Shown here: positions 5,615-51,467 of the stretch, piece by piece
Layout of the letters: every line of letters starts with the position of its first letter
Position numbering within the stretch: the stretch's first letter is position 1
Assembly (NCBI GenBank): GCA_947589425.1
Contig: CANQAV010000012.1
Span: 1-59,486, forward strand
Length of the DNA stretch: 59,486 nucleotides
Reading direction: 5' to 3'
Source: Candidatus Gastranaerophilales bacterium
GTDB lineage: Bacteria > Cyanobacteriota > Vampirovibrionia > Gastranaerophilales > Gastranaerophilaceae
Position numbers and translations under genes: made by a program
Notes under the pieces: model-generated
What the model was told of the DNA's origin: nothing
What the model saw: only the letters and a program-made list of their open reading frames with translations
Database searches by the model: none

Positions 5615-8395
5615 ATGAACATAAACCCCTTAAATTTATATTTTAAGCCGATAACAAATAATATAGGGCAAGGACACAGGCTGCATGAAAAATCCGAAAT
5701 AAATTTATTGAAAAGAATTGAAAACTGCGATACTTTTGAAGCTTCAACTCCCCCTCGGCAAAATTTTGACATTTCAAAATATAATTTTATGCTTGACCCT
5801 GAAAAAAAGGAAATAATTCATGAAAAGTTTGAAGGTATTGAATTTACAAATGTAAATGCACAGCTTGCAGATATAATTTTATCAAACGAAAAACTATATA
5901 ACAGTAAAAACGGCTCCGTAAGAATAGGGGCAATCATGAAATCTGCCAAAACGCCTGAACAAGCCGAAGTTGCACAGACAATTCTTTCTGATGAAAATTT
6001 ATACGGAGCCGAAAACGTGATGATACACGTTAAAGAAATTATTCAAAGCGCAACAAGCCAAAACATTAAAGAAAAAGGCGATATAATGCGCTTATATTGC
6101 TCTGATGAAAAATTTTATAATAACAAAAATATATCAGGCCGGCTCGGAGAAATTATCTTATCAACAACCCCCGAAAATGCACAAGCAAGAGCGGATATAA
6201 TGAACTTATACCGTTTCGACGAAAAACTTTGGGGCAATTCGAATATGGCTCAACGGTTTGGGGATATTATAATTAACACTAACTCAGAAAACGTAAAAAC
6301 AAAAACCAACATAATGAAATTATATTGCTCTGATGAAAAACTGAATAACGGTACTGCAGCCAAATACGCAGGAGACATTATAAGGGCGGCGGATACTCAA
6401 GAGCGTGAAGAATTGGTAAAAACAATTCTTTCGGATGAAAAACTTTTTAACAATAAAAATATTATGGATAATATTTGGAAAATCATTTGTTTTTCATCTT
6501 CCGCCGAAAATATTAAAGCAAAAACGGATTTCATGAATTTTTACTGCCGTAATGAACAGTTCGGCAATAATTGGAATATAGAAGAATATCTTGGCGAAAT
6601 TATTGAAAATATAGATTGCAATAATTATGAACTTATGGAACAAATTCTTTCAACCAAAGGCCTTAGTCTTAAGATTGATGATATTTTTACCATTTTAAAA
6701 AGCTCTCATGGCAAAGGGGGAATGGAATATTTATCTCAAAAAGATTTAAACTCAGTCTTTGATGCTTTGGAGCTTCAAAAACAAAAGGCATTAGGAACAC
6801 CCGAATTATATGTTAACAGGGAATTTGAGTCTGATAATGAAGCTAAACAGGCGGTTGAGAATTTCTTCAATACTAACATAGTTAATTTAATGGTTATGTC
6901 GTCAATATTTGACAAAGAAGCTTTTAACGGCTTGCTGCGCATGAGGTTTAATGATGCCGAAGAATATTTTGAAATTATTGAAAATTTTACAAAAGAAGAA
7001 CTTGAACTTATCGAAAACTTAAGTAAATCTTGCAATATTGACGGCAAGCCTTTCATGCCCGTGCAAAAAATTGAATTTATAGATTTAATTATGGCATATA
7101 AAGAAAATAATTTGTCATACGAAAAAATATATTCAATGTTGGAAAACGGCAAAATTGATATAGGACAGCTCAATTTCGATTTGTTTTACGCAATAATGAA
7201 AAATTCGGGTTTAACGGAAGAAGAAATTCAATCCGTACCAAAAGAAAAATTGTTCGCTTGGGATATTAAATATATACATTTATTGTCAAAAGAAATTAAT
7301 GAAGATGAAGATATTGCATTTAACGATTTATTAAGAGCGGGAAATTTGGAAAAAGACTTTCTTCAATATATTCACGACACAAATAATGTTTACGGAAAAG
7401 CAAACGCAACAACAAAAGCTTTATATGAGGAATTAGGATTAAATTACGATAAGTGGCTGAGTCCGTCCAAAGAAAACAAAGTTCATTTTATTGCAAAAGA
7501 CAAAAATACGGAGCGGTTATCGCAAATTGTAAATCAAATTACTCAAGATATGAATGTTCTGATAAAAACACCGGCAGGACCTTTCTTAAAAAAACAATTC
7601 CCTAAGTTTATAAAAGGAGATGATTTTTTTATACCGAATGAATATTCAACCAATAAAGCAAAATTACAAGAATTATTAATTTTATTTACCGATACATCAG
7701 ACAAAGGACAGCTTTCTCAAATTTGGAAAAGAGCAAAAATTAATTCAGCTAATTCAAATCCTTCTAAGGCTTCAAGTGCAAAAAATACTCTGACTGTTTT
7801 AGAGCACTTAAATCAAAGATTAGAGGACTTGTCAAAAATTCAAGAAACAAAAACAGCCAAAACATTAGATTTAACAATTAAAATGTGGGATAGAGCTCCT
7901 CAAAAAGATATTTTCCAAGGCAATTATTCCTCTTGCTGTATTGCAATGGGCGGAGGAAACGGCTCTGCAATGCCGCATTATATTATGAACAGTTTATATA
8001 ATATGATAGAGCTTGTTGATAATCAAACCGGCAAAACAGTAGGAAATGCGCTTTGCTATTTTATTACAGACGAAGACAATAAACCTGCGTTTGTTATAGA
8101 CAATGTAGAAATTATGAACAATATAAAACCATCGTCGCAAACGGGAATTCAATTAAGAAATTCAATTACTCAATATGCTTCAAATATTTTAAAAGAAATT
8201 GCACCCGGTATTGAGATACCTATTTATATGGGTACATTATATAACGATATACCTTGCGAAGGTTTAAACAAAGGAGAAGGAAAGATATCCTTGTCGGGCG
8301 ATACGGACTGTGAAAAAATTTATATGGATTTATACGGCGGATGGGTTGTTAAAAGTAATTATACCGGTAAACAAAAATTTTATATTTTGAAATAA
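5615..8395 (+). CDS. Large repeat protein with lineage-type tag and C-terminal domain
   Basis: I do not recognise this 926-residue protein by family. It begins MNINPLN and carries DTFEAS near residue 40, like other tagged proteins in this window. Residues 85-330 hold seven copies of a 34-39 residue helical repeat centred on [DN]E[KNQ][LF]-x-[NG] (residues 91, 126, 164, 202, 240, 274, 313) followed by GEII or GDII, so an alpha-solenoid is likely. The middle (400-720) is helical and charged. A compact, different C-terminal domain (about 770-926) contains YSSCCIAMGGGNG, MPHYIMNSLYNMIEL and FVIDNVEI and looks enzymatic or ligand-binding. There is no classical signal peptide. AAGGAAG lies 11 bases before the ATG. 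It is monocistronic. Confidence 0.55.
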   Translation: MNINPLNLYFKPITNNIGQGHRLHEKSEINLLKRIENCDTFEASTPPRQNFDISKYNFMLDPEKKEIIHEKFEGIEFTNVNAQLADIILSNEKLYNSKNGSVRIGAIMKSAKTPEQAEVAQTILSDENLYGAENVMIHVKEIIQSATSQNIKEKGDIMRLYCSDEKFYNNKNISGRLGEIILSTTPENAQARADIMNLYRFDEKLWGNSNMAQRFGDIIINTNSENVKTKTNIMKLYCSDEKLNNGTAAKYAGDIIRAADTQEREELVKTILSDEKLFNNKNIMDNIWKIICFSSSAENIKAKTDFMNFYCRNEQFGNNWNIEEYLGEIIENIDCNNYELMEQILSTKGLSLKIDDIFTILKSSHGKGGMEYLSQKDLNSVFDALELQKQKALGTPELYVNREFESDNEAKQAVENFFNTNIVNLMVMSSIFDKEAFNGLLRMRFNDAEEYFEIIENFTKEELELIENLSKSCNIDGKPFMPVQKIEFIDLIMAYKENNLSYEKIYSMLENGKIDIGQLNFDLFYAIMKNSGLTEEEIQSVPKEKLFAWDIKYIHLLSKEINEDEDIAFNDLLRAGNLEKDFLQYIHDTNNVYGKANATTKALYEELGLNYDKWLSPSKENKVHFIAKDKNTERLSQIVNQITQDMNVLIKTPAGPFLKKQFPKFIKGDDFFIPNEYSTNKAKLQELLILFTDTSDKGQLSQIWKRAKINSANSNPSKASSAKNTLTVLEHLNQRLEDLSKIQETKTAKTLDLTIKMWDRAPQKDIFQGNYSSCCIAMGGGNGSAMPHYIMNSLYNMIELVDNQTGKTVGNALCYFITDEDNKPAFVIDNVEIMNNIKPSSQTGIQLRNSITQYASNILKEIAPGIEIPIYMGTLYNDIPCEGLNKGEGKISLSGDTDCEKIYMDLYGGWVVKSNYTGKQKFYILK

Positions 8396-30895: not shown

Positions 30896-32095
30896 ATGTC
30901 AGGTGAAAATTCTGTAGATAATAATCCTTCATTGGGTTCATATTTGGCATTTCCTGCTGCTACAGCAGGCTTTGGAGCATTAACAGCTCTGAAAAGAGCA
31001 GATTGGAAACCATCTGATGCTATTAAAAACTTAGAAATTGAAAACTTCAAAAAACTCGGAGTTACACTAAAAGACAATGGCGCAAAGGATATTTTTTCAA
31101 GAGGCACTGCTCTTGCAAAAAATTATGAAGCATATAAAAGCGCTTCAAAAGAAGCATATAAATGGGGCAAAAGGGCAAAAAAAGCCGCAAAGGGAAAAAT
31201 CGGCTTAAAAGATACTATTCTTAATTTCTTCAGAAAAGATAACAAAGTTACGGTTGATACAATAAAAGAAGCAAATGAAGCTGCGGCTAAAAAATTAAGC
31301 TCAATGAAAAAAAACCTCTCTCAAGGAAAAGAAATTGCCGAAGAAATTGTTGAAAACTCTGCAAAAACAGCAGCAAAAACAGGTTTTAAAGAAACCGCAA
31401 AAGGACTTGCAAAAAAAGAATTAACAAGCAAATTCAACCTCTTTATTTCCGTTGCAACAACGTTTATCCCTGCAATGAAAGATAAAGTTATCCCCGCATT
31501 TAAAAATGAAGGATTTATAAGCGGTATTAAAGAACTTGGTAAAGCGGCAGCTCAAACTGCAACCGACTTTATCGGTTATGCATTTGGCGGTGCAATAGGA
31601 AGAACAATAGGTACCGCAATAGGTACTGCTTTATGTCCCGGAGCAGGCTCATTTATAGGCGGTAATTTGGGCGATATGATTGGCTCTATGTTTATTGGCG
31701 GAAAAACAATGAAAGCGGTTAATAAATTAATTAAAGCGGACGATGGTCAATCGGCTCAAAAAGCATCTGATGAAGCTCAACAAATAAGCCAAAACAATCC
31801 TCAAATACAAGCTCCTTCAATGGAAACTACCAAGCAAAGTGATACGGATAATACGGCTGTAGCTCAAGGACAAAGCGAAGAAATTCAACCGCAGCCCCCT
31901 CAAAAAGATTTCAGCAATATCCCAAGCTTTGAAGAAGCACAGAAAATGGGCTTAGTAAAAGCACCCTCAAGACCAAAAACCGGCACAAGAAGAAGAAAAG
32001 TTGTTTTTAGGGGAACGGACGGATTTTATAAAAATAATGTAAAACAAAATCTTGTTACAAATAATAAACAAAACAAGTTTGACACTATTATGTAA
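30896..32095 (+). CDS. Lineage-type protein with Gly-zipper membrane segment
   Basis: I do not recognise this 399-residue protein. The N-terminal 160 residues are basic and helical (KWGKRAKKAAKGK). A Gly/Ala-rich hydrophobic stretch at about 224-280 (GYAFGGAIGRTIGTAIG, then PGAGSFIGGNLGDMIGSMFI) resembles glycine-zipper segments that insert into membranes. The tail is Gln/Pro/Ser-rich with a basic end (RPKTGTRRRKVVFRG). No signal peptide is present. AAGGAG precedes the ATG. It could be a membrane-inserting or scaffold protein. Confidence 0.55.
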   Translation: MSGENSVDNNPSLGSYLAFPAATAGFGALTALKRADWKPSDAIKNLEIENFKKLGVTLKDNGAKDIFSRGTALAKNYEAYKSASKEAYKWGKRAKKAAKGKIGLKDTILNFFRKDNKVTVDTIKEANEAAAKKLSSMKKNLSQGKEIAEEIVENSAKTAAKTGFKETAKGLAKKELTSKFNLFISVATTFIPAMKDKVIPAFKNEGFISGIKELGKAAAQTATDFIGYAFGGAIGRTIGTAIGTALCPGAGSFIGGNLGDMIGSMFIGGKTMKAVNKLIKADDGQSAQKASDEAQQISQNNPQIQAPSMETTKQSDTDNTAVAQGQSEEIQPQPPQKDFSNIPSFEEAQKMGLVKAPSRPKTGTRRRKVVFRGTDGFYKNNVKQNLVTNNKQNKFDTIM

Positions 32096-32318
32096 GAAGA
32101 TTATCAAGCGCAGCTAAATTTTCGTAAGGAACACCCGCTTCAGAGAGCTCTTCCGCCGTTATTCCGAAAAGACTTATTGTATCAAGGACTTTTTTATAGT
32201 CCCCGTCTTTTTTTATTGTCTTTGAAATAGTTTTAAAAACATTGTTCACGGCTTCTTCTCTTGTCATAAAATATGAAGAAGAAGATTTATAGAGAGTTCT
32301 TTTTTTACATTTTCCCAT
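32088..32318 (-). CDS. Small hypothetical protein
   Basis: This 76-residue helical protein (TREEAVNNVFKTISKTIKKD, ITAEELSEAGVPYENLAAL) overlaps the end of the convergent gene by eight bases. No clear ribosome site is present and an internal Met at residue 18 is an alternative start. The composition is protein-like, so it is kept with modest confidence. Confidence 0.45.
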   Translation of the reverse strand: MGKCKKRTLYKSSSSYFMTREEAVNNVFKTISKTIKKDGDYKKVLDTISLFGITAEELSEAGVPYENLAALDNLLT

Positions 32319-32420: not shown

Positions 32421-33584
32421 ATGTTTATTAGACCGCTTAATATTATAAATACTTCAACAAATATTTTTCGCACAAAGGAAAACACTTCGACTTCACCTTT
32501 TGTACCTTCTGCGAAAAGTAAAATTTTATCACCTTTAACTCAAGATACAGTAAGCTTTAGCGGCTCGACCGCCCTAAATCATTCCCTTTTAGAGGCATTT
32601 GATAATTATAATGTCTGCAGAGATATAAGCCAAAATGCAGAGCCTGCCGAAACTTATCTTAAAAAAACTCTAAAAAATGCTCTGAGTGAATTTGTTGAAA
32701 GCGATACTAACAACGGGGTAATTTTGCCTGTTGTTTCAAGAGTTAAAACTCCCGACAGTATAAGAGAAAAAGTTGCAAGCGAACTTGAAAACATAATTTT
32801 AAAAGAGCCCTACAAGGCATTCAGCCCCAATGATATTGAAGCCGTTAAAAAAGTTTGCGGTGATATTATCGGAAGCAGAATAATTTTAAAAAGATCGGCT
32901 CCCGAGTATACTTCTAAAATAATAGATGCTCTTATAAAAGAGGTGGAAGCGGGAAGACTTAAAATTACAAAAATTGAAAACTATGAGCCTGATGACATTG
33001 AAGAAAACTGGAAATATTTCCAAAAACAAGATTTAGAAAGATTGCTGGATGCGGTTAACAGCAAAAGAAAAGAATACGGGCAAAAACCAATCGAGCTTAA
33101 TGAAACGCATAAAAGCACGGGATACATGGCGCTTCATCTTGATGTAGATTTATCAAATCCTGATTTTAAAGCAAAAAATAATAACTACAGAGGTGAAATC
33201 CAAATTGTCGGATACGACGTTTCGGGACTTAAAGATGTTGAGGATTTTTGTTATAAATTAAAATCCAAAAAAGATATAAAAAGCGGAAATTTAGCATATA
33301 AACCCTTTGTTGAATATTTTAATCAAAATATGGCAAAAACGGACGAATACCCCGAACTGGACAAAAATTTCCTTGAATATACAAGAAAAGCATATTCAAT
33401 TCAAAGACACAAAGCACCCATGGAAGGAAAATCAAAAGCAAGAAGAAAATACCACATACTTCCCACAATTGAGCAGTGCGGTCTTGAAGGAAAAATCCCC
33501 GAAGCTCTTGATTTTAATAAATTATCAAAGATTAAACACTATTGCGATAAAATTTATGAATTAACAAGCGAAATGAACTCATAA
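32421..33584 (+). CDS. RelA/SpoT-like nucleotidyltransferase with N-terminal tag
   Basis: This 387-residue protein begins MFIRPLN and has a disordered N-terminus ending in DTVSFSG (42-48). Residues about 100-285 carry the alarmone synthetase signatures in order: SRVKTPDSIREK (106-117, the R-x-K-x-x-x-S-I-x-x-K element), DIIGSRIIL (148-156), TGYMALHL (233-240, the G-loop Tyr and His) and GEIQIVG (258-264, Glu for Mg). The (p)ppGpp hydrolase and TGS/ACT regions are absent, so it resembles small alarmone synthetases or toxSAS enzymes that pyrophosphorylate nucleotides or tRNA CCA ends. The C-terminal 100 residues are basic and unassigned. It is monocistronic with no adjacent antitoxin. Confidence 0.68.
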   Translation: MFIRPLNIINTSTNIFRTKENTSTSPFVPSAKSKILSPLTQDTVSFSGSTALNHSLLEAFDNYNVCRDISQNAEPAETYLKKTLKNALSEFVESDTNNGVILPVVSRVKTPDSIREKVASELENIILKEPYKAFSPNDIEAVKKVCGDIIGSRIILKRSAPEYTSKIIDALIKEVEAGRLKITKIENYEPDDIEENWKYFQKQDLERLLDAVNSKRKEYGQKPIELNETHKSTGYMALHLDVDLSNPDFKAKNNNYRGEIQIVGYDVSGLKDVEDFCYKLKSKKDIKSGNLAYKPFVEYFNQNMAKTDEYPELDKNFLEYTRKAYSIQRHKAPMEGKSKARRKYHILPTIEQCGLEGKIPEALDFNKLSKIKHYCDKIYELTSEMNS

Positions 33585-35852: not shown

Positions 35853-35894
35853 AATTTTATATCCCCATAAAAGTCGTAAATAATTAATATTATA

Positions 35895-35911
35895 TGCTAT
35901 TATATATTTAT
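35895..35911 (+). promoter_or_regulatory. Extended -10 promoter of the metzincin gene, probably leaderless
   Basis: TG at 35895-35896 and TATTAT at 35898-35903 end eight bases before the ATG at 35912. There is no ribosome site. Confidence 0.55.
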
Positions 35912-36688
35912 ATGCAAACAAATACTTATCTTTATGATTGTTTTTCAAAAGGCAAATTGTCCCGCTGGGATGAAAAAGTTATGCCCTTAAAGGTTTTTAT
36001 CGGTAAATTTAACTGGTATCAAAAAGGGTCAAATGACGAATATAAATTTACCCAGATGATAATAGACGGTTTTAATTTTTGGGAACAGGCTTCGGGCGGT
36101 ATTGTTTCTTTTGAAAGAACGCTTGATATGTATGACTCTCAAATTAATGTCGAGTGGAGAAGGGTGGATAGAAAATCTTTAGGTCATTGCCAATATAACT
36201 GGGATAAATTGGGAAGATACTATAGCGCCGAGGTTTCAATAGGTTTATCGGACGGTATTATTCATCATCAGTATATGGATGATAATGAAGTATATCATAC
36301 AATATTACACGAAATCGGTCATTCGGTGGGTTTGGGACATTCCAAAACAAAAGGGGATATAATGTATGTGCCCCATGAATACGGAAGTGTTAATGTATCT
36401 AAAAACGATATAGAAACTCTTAAATGGCTTTATAAATTCCCCGTCGGAAAAACACAGAGCGAAATACTTGCCCAATATTCTTCTTATCAGGCAAAAAGTC
36501 TTGATGAACTGGTTTATAAAATCAATAATCAAGGCTATAAATCGGAATTTGAAAAAACAAAAGATGCTCTTTTAAATAATGCTCCGCCTCAAAAAGACCT
36601 TCTTGAAGAAAATGCCAATATAGGAGATCTTAAAAAATATCTTATGCAGGTAAATGATATAAAAATCAACTATAAACCCAAAAAATAA
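35912..36688 (+). CDS. Metzincin (M10-like) zinc metalloprotease
   Basis: This 258-residue protein has the matrixin signature HEIGHSVGLGH (His133, Glu134, His137, His143) and the Met-turn DIMY (Met151) seven to eight residues later, with the upstream INVEWRR and GHCQYNW strands typical of the fold. The C-terminal 80 residues are helical and unassigned. No signal peptide is seen, so export, if any, is non-classical. Start 35912 is favoured over 35894 because the -10 element lies between them. It overlaps the convergent TIM-barrel gene by 19 bases. Confidence 0.82.
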   Translation: MQTNTYLYDCFSKGKLSRWDEKVMPLKVFIGKFNWYQKGSNDEYKFTQMIIDGFNFWEQASGGIVSFERTLDMYDSQINVEWRRVDRKSLGHCQYNWDKLGRYYSAEVSIGLSDGIIHHQYMDDNEVYHTILHEIGHSVGLGHSKTKGDIMYVPHEYGSVNVSKNDIETLKWLYKFPVGKTQSEILAQYSSYQAKSLDELVYKINNQGYKSEFEKTKDALLNNAPPQKDLLEENANIGDLKKYLMQVNDIKINYKPKK

Positions 36689-49947: not shown

Positions 49948-50078
49948 TAAAACAGCACCTTATTAACTTTTACAGTTTTATTTTATATTAAATATTTAAA
50001 TGTGTTAATATTATTTTAAAAAATATCAATTTTTTTATTCCTTTGTTTTTATATAAACAGGAAGGTTATTGTGTTTTA

Positions 50079-51467
50079 ATGTTAAACGGTATTAATTTTA
50101 ATACAAATTATAATAAAAATATAACTTTTAAGGCAGATACTCCCCTGAAACAGGATAGTTTTGCATCAAAAAAACAAAATGCTAAAGCCGTTACTTCTTC
50201 GCCAATTCTTCCTTCAATAAGAACAACCCTTTCTCAAGATGAGCAATTTAAATATCTTTTTCTTTTAAATATGTTAAAAGATTTACCAAAAAGCGAAAAT
50301 GCGCAGGATTTAACCCCTGCAAAACAGCTTGAAACGCTTTTAAAAAACGGTAAATTGCTCTCACGCTCAAACGATAATACAACAGCTCTTGATAACCTTT
50401 ATTCAATGGCATCTGAAGAAAGAGCCTATAATTTATCCCCTCAAAATTTAATTACAAACACTCTTGATATTTTGGTCAACCCGAAAATAATAACTCAAGA
50501 GTTCGGCGACATTCCTCAAGCTGAAAAACAAAAAATAATTTCATACCTTCCTAAAAATCACCCTGCAAGATTAAACCCCGACCTTTTAAATGTTCAAGCA
50601 TCGGGCACATGCGCCGCAGCATCAAACGAAGTAAATCTTGCCGATAAATATCCTGCCGAATTTGCAAGGTGGGTTAACCATTTATCCGGAAAAGAAAAAT
50701 CTCTTTATTTAAATACGAAATTAAGCTCAATTTCAAGCAACAAACTTGATGCGATAACAATTCTCAAACTGCTAAAAGCAAACACAAAAGACTTTAATTT
50801 TGACTCCGTTAAAATTAAAGTCGAAACCGATCCTTATGCTTATGCAAGAGCTTATATTCAAGATAAATATTGGAACAAGGGCGAAAGAAACGTTGCAGAT
50901 GTTCTTGTACAGTCTGCCATTATGCAGTTGGGCTCTCAAAATACTTATGATTCTTTAACCGATATGAGAGGCGGGGAATTTAACTCCAATCCTCAAGGGC
51001 TTGTTGAAATTGAAAAAACTTATGTTGAATCTTTAATTAAAAACGAAGAAATAACTTCCCTCGTATATCAAAAAATTGATGAAAATCAAAATCTAATCGG
51101 CTATTCCTGCTCGTTTGAAAAAATGCAAAAACATATTCTTGATGCACTTGACAGCAGAAATAACGTCATAGTGGGCTATATTTTAACAAACGAAACTTCG
51201 GGAAGAAATACTCTTGAAGGATATAACCCCGCCGTTGACGGAGCTTCAAACAAAGTAATCAACGGACATGAAATTACAATTGTTGACTATAAAAAAGATG
51301 AAAACGGAAAAGTTACGTTCATTTGTATTGATACGGATGACGACAGTTCGGAATTTGTTGAATATTCTGCCGATTGGCTTCTTCCCAAAATACATCATGC
51401 CGGCTATGTTTCAGCCCAGGTAAAAGATGATGAGGAAGCAATTTTAAAAGAAGCGAGTGTTATTTAA
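50079..51467 (+). CDS. Papain-fold cysteine-peptidase-like protein with N-terminal tag
   Basis: I do not recognise a named family for this 462-residue protein. It opens MLNGINFNTNYNKNITFKAD, the lineage tag (ITFKA, 15-19). A helical part (50-170) precedes a block with ASGTCAAASNEV (Cys178), and the C-terminal part has INGHEITIVDY (His397) and CIDTDDD (Asp418). This Cys...His...Asp order with hydrophobic strands after His fits a papain/C39-like thiol peptidase or transglutaminase fold. No classical signal peptide is present. ATG 50079 is used; AGGAAGG is further than ideal (about 14 bases). It overlaps the convergent hydrogenase gene by four bases. Confidence 0.6.
   Translation: MLNGINFNTNYNKNITFKADTPLKQDSFASKKQNAKAVTSSPILPSIRTTLSQDEQFKYLFLLNMLKDLPKSENAQDLTPAKQLETLLKNGKLLSRSNDNTTALDNLYSMASEERAYNLSPQNLITNTLDILVNPKIITQEFGDIPQAEKQKIISYLPKNHPARLNPDLLNVQASGTCAAASNEVNLADKYPAEFARWVNHLSGKEKSLYLNTKLSSISSNKLDAITILKLLKANTKDFNFDSVKIKVETDPYAYARAYIQDKYWNKGERNVADVLVQSAIMQLGSQNTYDSLTDMRGGEFNSNPQGLVEIEKTYVESLIKNEEITSLVYQKIDENQNLIGYSCSFEKMQKHILDALDSRNNVIVGYILTNETSGRNTLEGYNPAVDGASNKVINGHEITIVDYKKDENGKVTFICIDTDDDSSEFVEYSADWLLPKIHHAGYVSAQVKDDEEAILKEASVI

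What the first reader, a model, noticed from the sequence alone, without database searches (positions are those of the whole stretch)
32421..33584. Tagged RelA/SpoT-like nucleotidyltransferase without hydrolase domain
All four alarmone synthetase motifs occur in order (106-117, 148-156, 233-240, 258-264), but the protein has a disordered N-terminus ending in DTVSFSG and a 100-residue basic tail, unlike RelQ/RelP. It could make (p)ppGpp or (p)ppApp, modify tRNA CCA ends, or be an exported effector acting on other cells.
Basis: partly seen in the sequence, partly recalled or inferred. Interest (0 to 1): 0.75.

Follow-up and report, generated by a model that had tools for sequence, protein, structure and literature searches.

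The report
Tagged alarmone synthetase of gut cyanobacteria
A non-photosynthetic gut cyanobacterium carries, besides its normal stringent-response enzyme, a second and very divergent alarmone-making enzyme whose floppy front end holds a short address-like motif that also occurs on at least nineteen unrelated protein families of the same bacterial order and whose purpose is unknown.

Summary
It belongs to a divergent RelA/SpoT-fold family found in 27 of 28 genomes of the genus and in 57 loci from GTDB species, nearly all titled Gastranaerophilales. All catalytic residues (R107, K109, S113, K117, D148, R153, Y235, E259, Q261) are essentially invariant. An AlphaFold model (pLDDT 87, pTM 0.82) aligns over residues 58-340 with whole RelP/RelQ (Z about 13). 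There is no hydrolase domain; the genome has a separate long Rel. The family differs from RelP/RelQ: the Arg-Thr of EIQIRT is missing, the ribose-binding His of LEH is an invariant Asp, about 35 residues are inserted before the G-loop, and about 47 residues follow. The 'basic tail' is folded and only mildly basic. Context argues against a toxin-antitoxin module. The surprise is the tag: LxPLxxDTVSFxG is better conserved than the enzyme domain, and a profile finds it at the N-terminus of 19 unrelated families of the order (FtsH-like, M29 peptidase, GH130, ankyrin, LRR-like), with no hit in a reversed control. Best reading: an active pyrophosphotransferase, probably making (p)ppGpp, directed by an undescribed targeting motif. 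Activity and acceptor are untested.

The parts
32421..33584 (+). CDS of the tagged RelA/SpoT-fold protein (387 aa)
   Evidence: homologous open frames in 27 of 28 same-genus genomes
32421..32525 (+). residues 1-35: disordered, poorly conserved N-terminal tail
   Evidence: pLDDT < 50 for 1-32; mean entropy 2.66 bits
32526..32564 (+). residues 36-48: N-terminal tag LSPLTQDTVSFSG
   Evidence: D42 and F46 invariant in 57/57; mean entropy 1.37 bits versus 2.0 for the catalytic domain; same motif in 19 unrelated families, 0 hits in reversed control
32739..32771 (+). residues 107-117: ATP/pyrophosphate-donor motif RxKxxxSIxxK
   Evidence: equivalent to SaRelP R78/K80/S84/K88 (PMC5794853) and FaRel2 R64/K66/S70/K74 (PMC11782079); R107 54/57, K109, S113, K117 invariant
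32862..32879 (+). residues 148-153: DxxGxR; Mg-binding Asp and adenine-stacking Arg
   Evidence: D148 57/57, R153 56/57; SaRelP D107/R112 (PMC5794853)
32991..33110 (+). residues about 191-230: family-specific insert before the G-loop, with helix 202-218 and invariant Y199
   Evidence: profile alignment to YwaC skips about residues 190-222; helix in the models; Y199 57/57
33120..33137 (+). residues 234-239: G-loop GYMALH, acceptor-base tyrosine Y235
   Evidence: Y235 57/57, H239 56/57
33195..33212 (+). residues 259-264: EIQIVG; catalytic E259 and Q261, Arg-Thr of EIQIRT missing
   Evidence: E259, Q261, G264 57/57; position 263 always hydrophobic
33240..33257 (+). residues 274-279: EDFCYK; D275 stands where RelP has the ribose-binding His190
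   Evidence: E274 and D275 57/57; PMC5794853
33441..33581 (+). residues 341-387: C-terminal extension beyond the RelP/RelQ-like domain, conserved LPTI..CG..GK.P..LDFN
   Evidence: structural match to RelP ends at about 340; D364 57/57

Best explanation
The protein is a catalytically competent, single-domain RelA/SpoT-type pyrophosphotransferase, an example of a Gastranaerophilales-specific small alarmone synthetase family. It binds Mg-ATP between R107 and R153, uses D148 and E259 for metal and catalysis, stacks the acceptor base on Y235, and moves pyrophosphate from ATP to the 3'-OH of a purine nucleotide, most likely GDP/GTP, giving (p)ppGpp. The long Rel of the same genome would degrade the product. 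The N-terminal tail is not part of the enzyme: residues 36-48 form a short docking motif, shared by unrelated proteins of the order, that brings the enzyme to a particular partner or site. Shown: homology, fold, residue conservation, tag recurrence, core-gene distribution. Inferred: activity, acceptor, cytoplasmic location, docking role of the tag.
For: Profile-to-PDB match to SAS enzymes at E 1.2e-6. AlphaFold model pLDDT 87.4, pTM 0.82 with RelP/RelQ at Z 12.5-13.0 over 182-197 residues, well above the unrelated polymerase rows at about Z 7. Nine catalytic residues near-invariant in 57 homologues. Present in 27 of 28 same-genus genomes with fixed synteny and no partner gene; no homologue in phage or plasmid collections. 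Own genome has one other RelA_SpoT protein, a 751-753 aa Rel. Tag more conserved than the domain, in 20 families including this one, among them relatives of FtsH, M29 peptidase and GH130 phosphorylase. The tag segment stays unstructured in the model, as expected of a motif bound by something else.
Against: This protein alone is below Pfam's curated cut-off. Positions used by RelP are changed: R91 is S120, His190 is D275, and the Arg-Thr after EIQI is gone. The Lys four residues before the G-loop Tyr is not conserved (20/57), so the acceptor-side positive patch may be reduced. The family evolves faster than most neighbours (45.5% median identity versus 67-81%). No activity data exist and the tag's receptor is unknown.
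Confidence: 0.55

Rival explanations
1. Exported alarmone synthetase: the tag is a signal for a non-Sec export route (for example the flagellar or type III-like apparatus) and the enzyme acts outside the cell or in another cell.
For: About 600 exported alarmone synthetases are known, many without immunity genes (PMC12691689), and the solved one (8vx3) is among the structural matches (Z 11.7, rmsd 3.4, 189 residues). FlhA-type export genes are in 57 of 58 relatives. The tag is disordered and N-terminal, and other carriers look effector-like (ankyrin, LRR-like). A related SYNTH domain sits at the C-terminus of a large protein.
Against: No Sec-like hydrophobic segment. Tagged proteins also include relatives of ordinary cytoplasmic enzymes, GH130 phosphorylase and FtsH-like protease. 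FlhA is near-universal in the order, so its co-occurrence says nothing. Core-gene distribution and fixed synteny are unlike most injected effectors.
Confidence: 0.2
2. toxSAS-like toxin that pyrophosphorylates tRNA 3'-CCA ends or makes toxic (p)ppApp, possibly with the C-terminal extension as built-in antitoxin.
For: CapRel aligns well (Z 12.1, rmsd 4.7, 216 residues) and Tas1 matches (Z 9.6, rmsd 4.0, 168 residues). The acceptor-side positive patch may be smaller than in (p)ppGpp synthetases, as described for FaRel2 (PMC11782079).
Against: No adjacent antitoxin-type gene and fixed housekeeping neighbours; no mobile homologue; in the final model CapRel is aligned only to its residue 275, not through its C-terminal antitoxin domain; no conserved basic pair at the FaRel2 K28/R29 region.
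Confidence: 0.1
3. Pyrophosphotransferase with a different acceptor (GMP, another nucleotide or another 3'-OH substrate): the missing Arg-Thr, the invariant Asp275 and the G-loop insert mark a changed acceptor site.
For: The changes are fixed in all 57 homologues, while the giant and gly-zipper-linked relatives keep QIR/KG and VEH/CEH, so the change looks derived and specific to the tagged family.
Against: Y235 and H239 of the G-loop are kept; no alternative acceptor is indicated by any data.
Confidence: 0.15

Closest known systems
[quoted passage not shown]
   Same: Whole-domain fold match over residues 58-340 (Z about 13), same donor-site Arg/Lys/Ser/Lys/Asp/Arg/Glu and G-loop Tyr, no hydrolase domain
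   Different: 16-21% identity; RelP R91, His190 and the Arg-Thr of EIQIRT absent; about 35-residue insert before the G-loop; about 47-residue C-terminal extension; tagged disordered N-terminus
Exported alarmone synthetases (SaEAS, 8vx3; PMC12691689)
   Same: SYNTH fold (Z 11.7, rmsd 3.4, 189 residues), stand-alone gene without immunity gene, N-terminal appendage
   Different: No Sec peptide; a peptide tag instead of a known secretion domain; conserved housekeeping locus
toxSAS and CapRel (FaRel2, CapRel-SJ46)
   Same: SYNTH fold (CapRel Z 12.1) and the same ATP-donor residues
   Different: No antitoxin gene, not mobile, tRNA-binding basic pair not conserved
Long RSH enzymes (Rel, RelA, SpoT)
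   Same: Homologous synthetase domain
   Different: No HD hydrolase, TGS or ACT domains; the genome has a separate 751-753 aa Rel

Membership tests
RSH synthetase (SYNTH) superfamily, Pfam RelA_SpoT | Homology to the RelA_SpoT region | tested here: met
   E 2.7e-4 in this protein, <= 0.001 in 26 of 44 members, best 1e-9; profile to YwaC E 1.2e-6
RSH synthetase (SYNTH) superfamily, Pfam RelA_SpoT | Score above Pfam's curated cut-off for this protein | tested here: inconclusive
   21.6 bits versus 27; inserts stretch the match over 158 residues for 90 profile positions
RSH synthetase (SYNTH) superfamily, Pfam RelA_SpoT | Synthetase fold | tested here: met
   AlphaFold model versus RelP/RelQ Z 12.5-13.0, 182-197 residues
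RSH synthetase (SYNTH) superfamily, Pfam RelA_SpoT | Donor-site RxKxxxSIxxK, catalytic Asp and Glu, adenine-stacking Args, G-loop Tyr | tested here: met
   residue roles from PMC5794853 and PMC11782079
RSH synthetase (SYNTH) superfamily, Pfam RelA_SpoT | Alarmone synthesis | not testable with these tools
   needs a nucleotide assay
RelP/RelQ subfamily | RelP R91 and His190 at the ATP site | tested here: not met
   S120 (variable) and D275 (57/57 Asp)
RelP/RelQ subfamily | Arg-Thr following EIQI | tested here: not met
   position 263 always hydrophobic, 264 always Gly
RelP/RelQ subfamily | Homotetramer | not testable with these tools
   single-chain prediction only
toxSAS toxin-antitoxin modules | Adjacent or fused antitoxin | tested here: not met
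   no partner conserved across both synteny groups; the divergent 76-aa neighbour is absent from the second group
toxSAS toxin-antitoxin modules | Basic tRNA-binding pair in the alpha2-alpha3 loop | tested here: inconclusive
   residues 72-76 carry no conserved basic pair, but the register to FaRel2 was not structurally verified
Exported alarmone synthetases | Sec signal peptide | tested here: not met
   polar, disordered N-terminus without a hydrophobic segment
Exported alarmone synthetases | Presence outside the cytoplasm | not testable with these tools
   needs fractionation or reporter fusions

The most novel reading that the evidence does not exclude
The LxPLxxDTVSFxG tag is an undescribed protein-targeting signal of Gastranaerophilales, recognised by a dedicated receptor (a scaffold, a compartment or an export gate), and one of its cargoes is an alarmone synthetase that makes its nucleotide at that place instead of in the bulk cytoplasm.
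Probability: 0.4. Interest if true: 0.85.

Novelty: new variant of a known kind. Interest (0 to 1): 0.6.

Why it matters
It adds a second, order-specific alarmone synthetase to the near-uncultured gut cyanobacteria. It also exposes a peptide motif shared by at least 20 otherwise unrelated protein families, in the style of a sorting signal. If the receptor is found, it would show where such cells send an alarmone enzyme, a peptidase, an FtsH-like protein and repeat proteins, and whether alarmone signalling can be local or exported.

Tried and rejected
Single-sequence scans of viral and genome collections found nothing; the alignment query was needed. No relatives in viral contigs, phages or plasmids. 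NCBIfam, PADLOC and PHROGs gave no useful hit for the protein itself. The strict tag at DNA level occurs once in the own genome; the profile was needed to see it elsewhere. Encapsulin (PF04454) and microcompartment shell (PF00936) as tag receptors: no match in the own genome. Link of the tag to a flagellar or type III export type: FlhA is in 57 of 58 genomes, so uninformative. The whole genome was not available as a file, so about 1.26 Mb was read as stretches and tag statistics in the own genome rest on that part. No paper was found in the held library on alarmones or such a motif in Gastranaerophilales. A CapRel-type YxxY motif in the C-terminal part is not a family feature (30 of 57). The last 47 residues were not folded alone, so a hidden fold match there is not excluded.

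Full report
WHAT IS THERE. The ORF 32421-33584 (+) encodes 387 residues. The window is contig 12 of a 1.87 Mb, 99.8% complete genome. Close relatives are recorded as Candidatus Gastranaerophilales, non-photosynthetic gut Cyanobacteria. A homologue is found in 27 of 28 genomes of the genus by single-sequence search, and 57 loci in GTDB species genomes encode relatives; the records that name a lineage are Gastranaerophilales or Cyanobacteria except one titled Clostridia; the others are unnamed 'bacterium' bins.

IS IT A RELA/SPOT PROTEIN? Yes. Pfam RelA_SpoT is the only meaningful family hit, sub-threshold for this member but E <= 0.001 in 26 of 44 members (best 1e-9). A family profile finds YwaC, RelP and the streptococcal SAS in the PDB (best E 1.2e-6). 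AlphaFold2 on 44 sequences gives pLDDT 87.4 and pTM 0.82. The structure matches RelP/RelQ over residues 58-340 (Z 12.5-13.0), CapRel (12.1), the exported Streptomyces enzyme (11.7) and Tas1 (9.6), with unrelated polymerases near 7. The donor-site residues described for SaRelP (PMC5794853) and FaRel2 (PMC11782079) map to R107, K109, S113, K117, D148, R153, E259 and Q261, and the acceptor tyrosine to Y235; all are invariant or nearly so in 57 homologues.

HOW IT DIFFERS. Relative to RelP: R91 is S120 and variable; the ribose-contacting His190 is an invariant Asp275; Arg-Thr after EIQI is missing; about 35 residues with a helix are inserted before the G-loop; and about 47 conserved residues follow the domain. 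Other Gastranaerophilales SYNTH proteins (a 528-aa protein in L030, a 1209-aa protein in L199, a 478-aa protein in L201) keep QIR/KG and VEH/CEH-like sequences, so the tagged family looks derived. It is a relative of RelP/RelQ, not a member of that subfamily.

CONTEXT. Upstream are a histidine kinase, a MrnC-like protein, a gly-zipper protein and a divergent 76-aa gene; downstream is glucose-6-phosphate isomerase (the last two names judged from sequence). This order is kept through most of the genus. A second group has another fixed neighbourhood. No antitoxin-like partner accompanies the gene, and no phage or plasmid homologue was found. Most neighbours are 67-81% identical (median) to the window's copies, the gene itself 45.5% and the gly-zipper gene 36.8%. 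The genome has one other RelA_SpoT protein, a long Rel whose sequence carries an HD-type N-terminus (judged by eye). The simplest role is a second, stand-alone alarmone synthetase whose product Rel can remove; this is inference.

THE TAG. Residues 36-48, LSPLTQDTVSFSG, lie in a disordered tail. Mean column entropy over residues 34-48 is 1.37 bits, versus 2.66 for the rest of the tail and 2.0 for the enzyme domain. D42 and F46 are invariant. The family profile unexpectedly matched unrelated ORFs through this stretch alone. A 26-column tag profile built from 32 segments finds 89 tagged ORFs in the DNA held, in 20 families after the tag is removed, starting at residue 18-65 (median 28), with no hit in the same proteins reversed. 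Caveat: many of the loci searched had been fetched because they matched, and some segments of the profile come from these proteins, so the count is not a census. In 58 relatives 49 genomes have a hit at E <= 0.1. In an even sample of 117 genomes of the phylum, all 24 genomes with hits at E <= 1e-4 belong to the window's own family, while one search also shows hits below 1e-5 in other families of the order. Tagged proteins include an FtsH-like AAA/M41 protein, an M29 peptidase, a GH130 phosphorylase, ankyrin and LRR-like proteins and many of unknown function. A looser relative of the tag, M[KR]I[NS]P[IV] followed by [IV][ST]F[KQG]G, occurs on further proteins of the window's genome; its statistics are modest (Fisher p 1.4e-4, some false members).

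WHAT THE TAG MIGHT DO. It stays unstructured in the model, so it probably binds another protein. Carriers resembling cytoplasmic enzymes argue for an intracellular address; effector-like carriers and a near-universal FlhA-type export apparatus leave export open. No encapsulin or microcompartment shell was found. I favour an intracellular docking role, without strong conviction.

VERDICT. The enzyme is a new variant of a known kind. The tag, shared by unrelated families, is the part that would surprise a specialist.

Noticed in passing
L183-L198, L232-L251 (N-termini); window 32526-32564: N-terminal motif [YN]xNLxPLxxD[TS][VI]SF[STG][GSA] shared by 20 unrelated protein families of Gastranaerophilales.
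   Followed up: partly
own genome C2:76007-78370, C5:24918-30877, C10:24443-26128; window 5615-8395 and 50043-51467: A looser N-terminal tag (MKI[NS]P[IV]...[IV][ST]F[KQG]G) on a triple-AAA protein, an ankyrin protein, possibly a starch-synthase-like protein, and unknowns; a shorter GlgA-like protein without such a tail lies at C1:82490.
   Followed up: partly
L199:1895-5524, L200:2896-6774: Proteins of about 1200-1300 aa in the same genus; L199 has a divergent SYNTH-like domain at its C-terminus (residues 860-1171) with QIRG and VEH kept. L200 matched the profile in the genome search but no Pfam family.
   Followed up: partly
own genome C13:18114-19148 and relatives: A protein of about 485 aa matching only the C-terminal half of FlhA, in most genomes of the order beside one or two full-length FlhA paralogues.
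   Followed up: no
window 30896-32095: Fast-evolving 399-aa protein with a glycine-zipper-like stretch, two genes upstream of the synthetase throughout most of the genus.
   Followed up: no
window 32088-32318 (-): 76-aa conserved gene divergently oriented to the synthetase; 67% median identity in the genus, absent from the second synteny group.
   Followed up: no
window 35894-36688: Matrixin-like (Peptidase_M10) metalloprotease without an obvious signal peptide.
   Followed up: no
L018 / L051 (G015:C71): One relative has the synthetase split into two open frames (152 and 196 aa), possibly a pseudogene or an assembly error.
   Followed up: no
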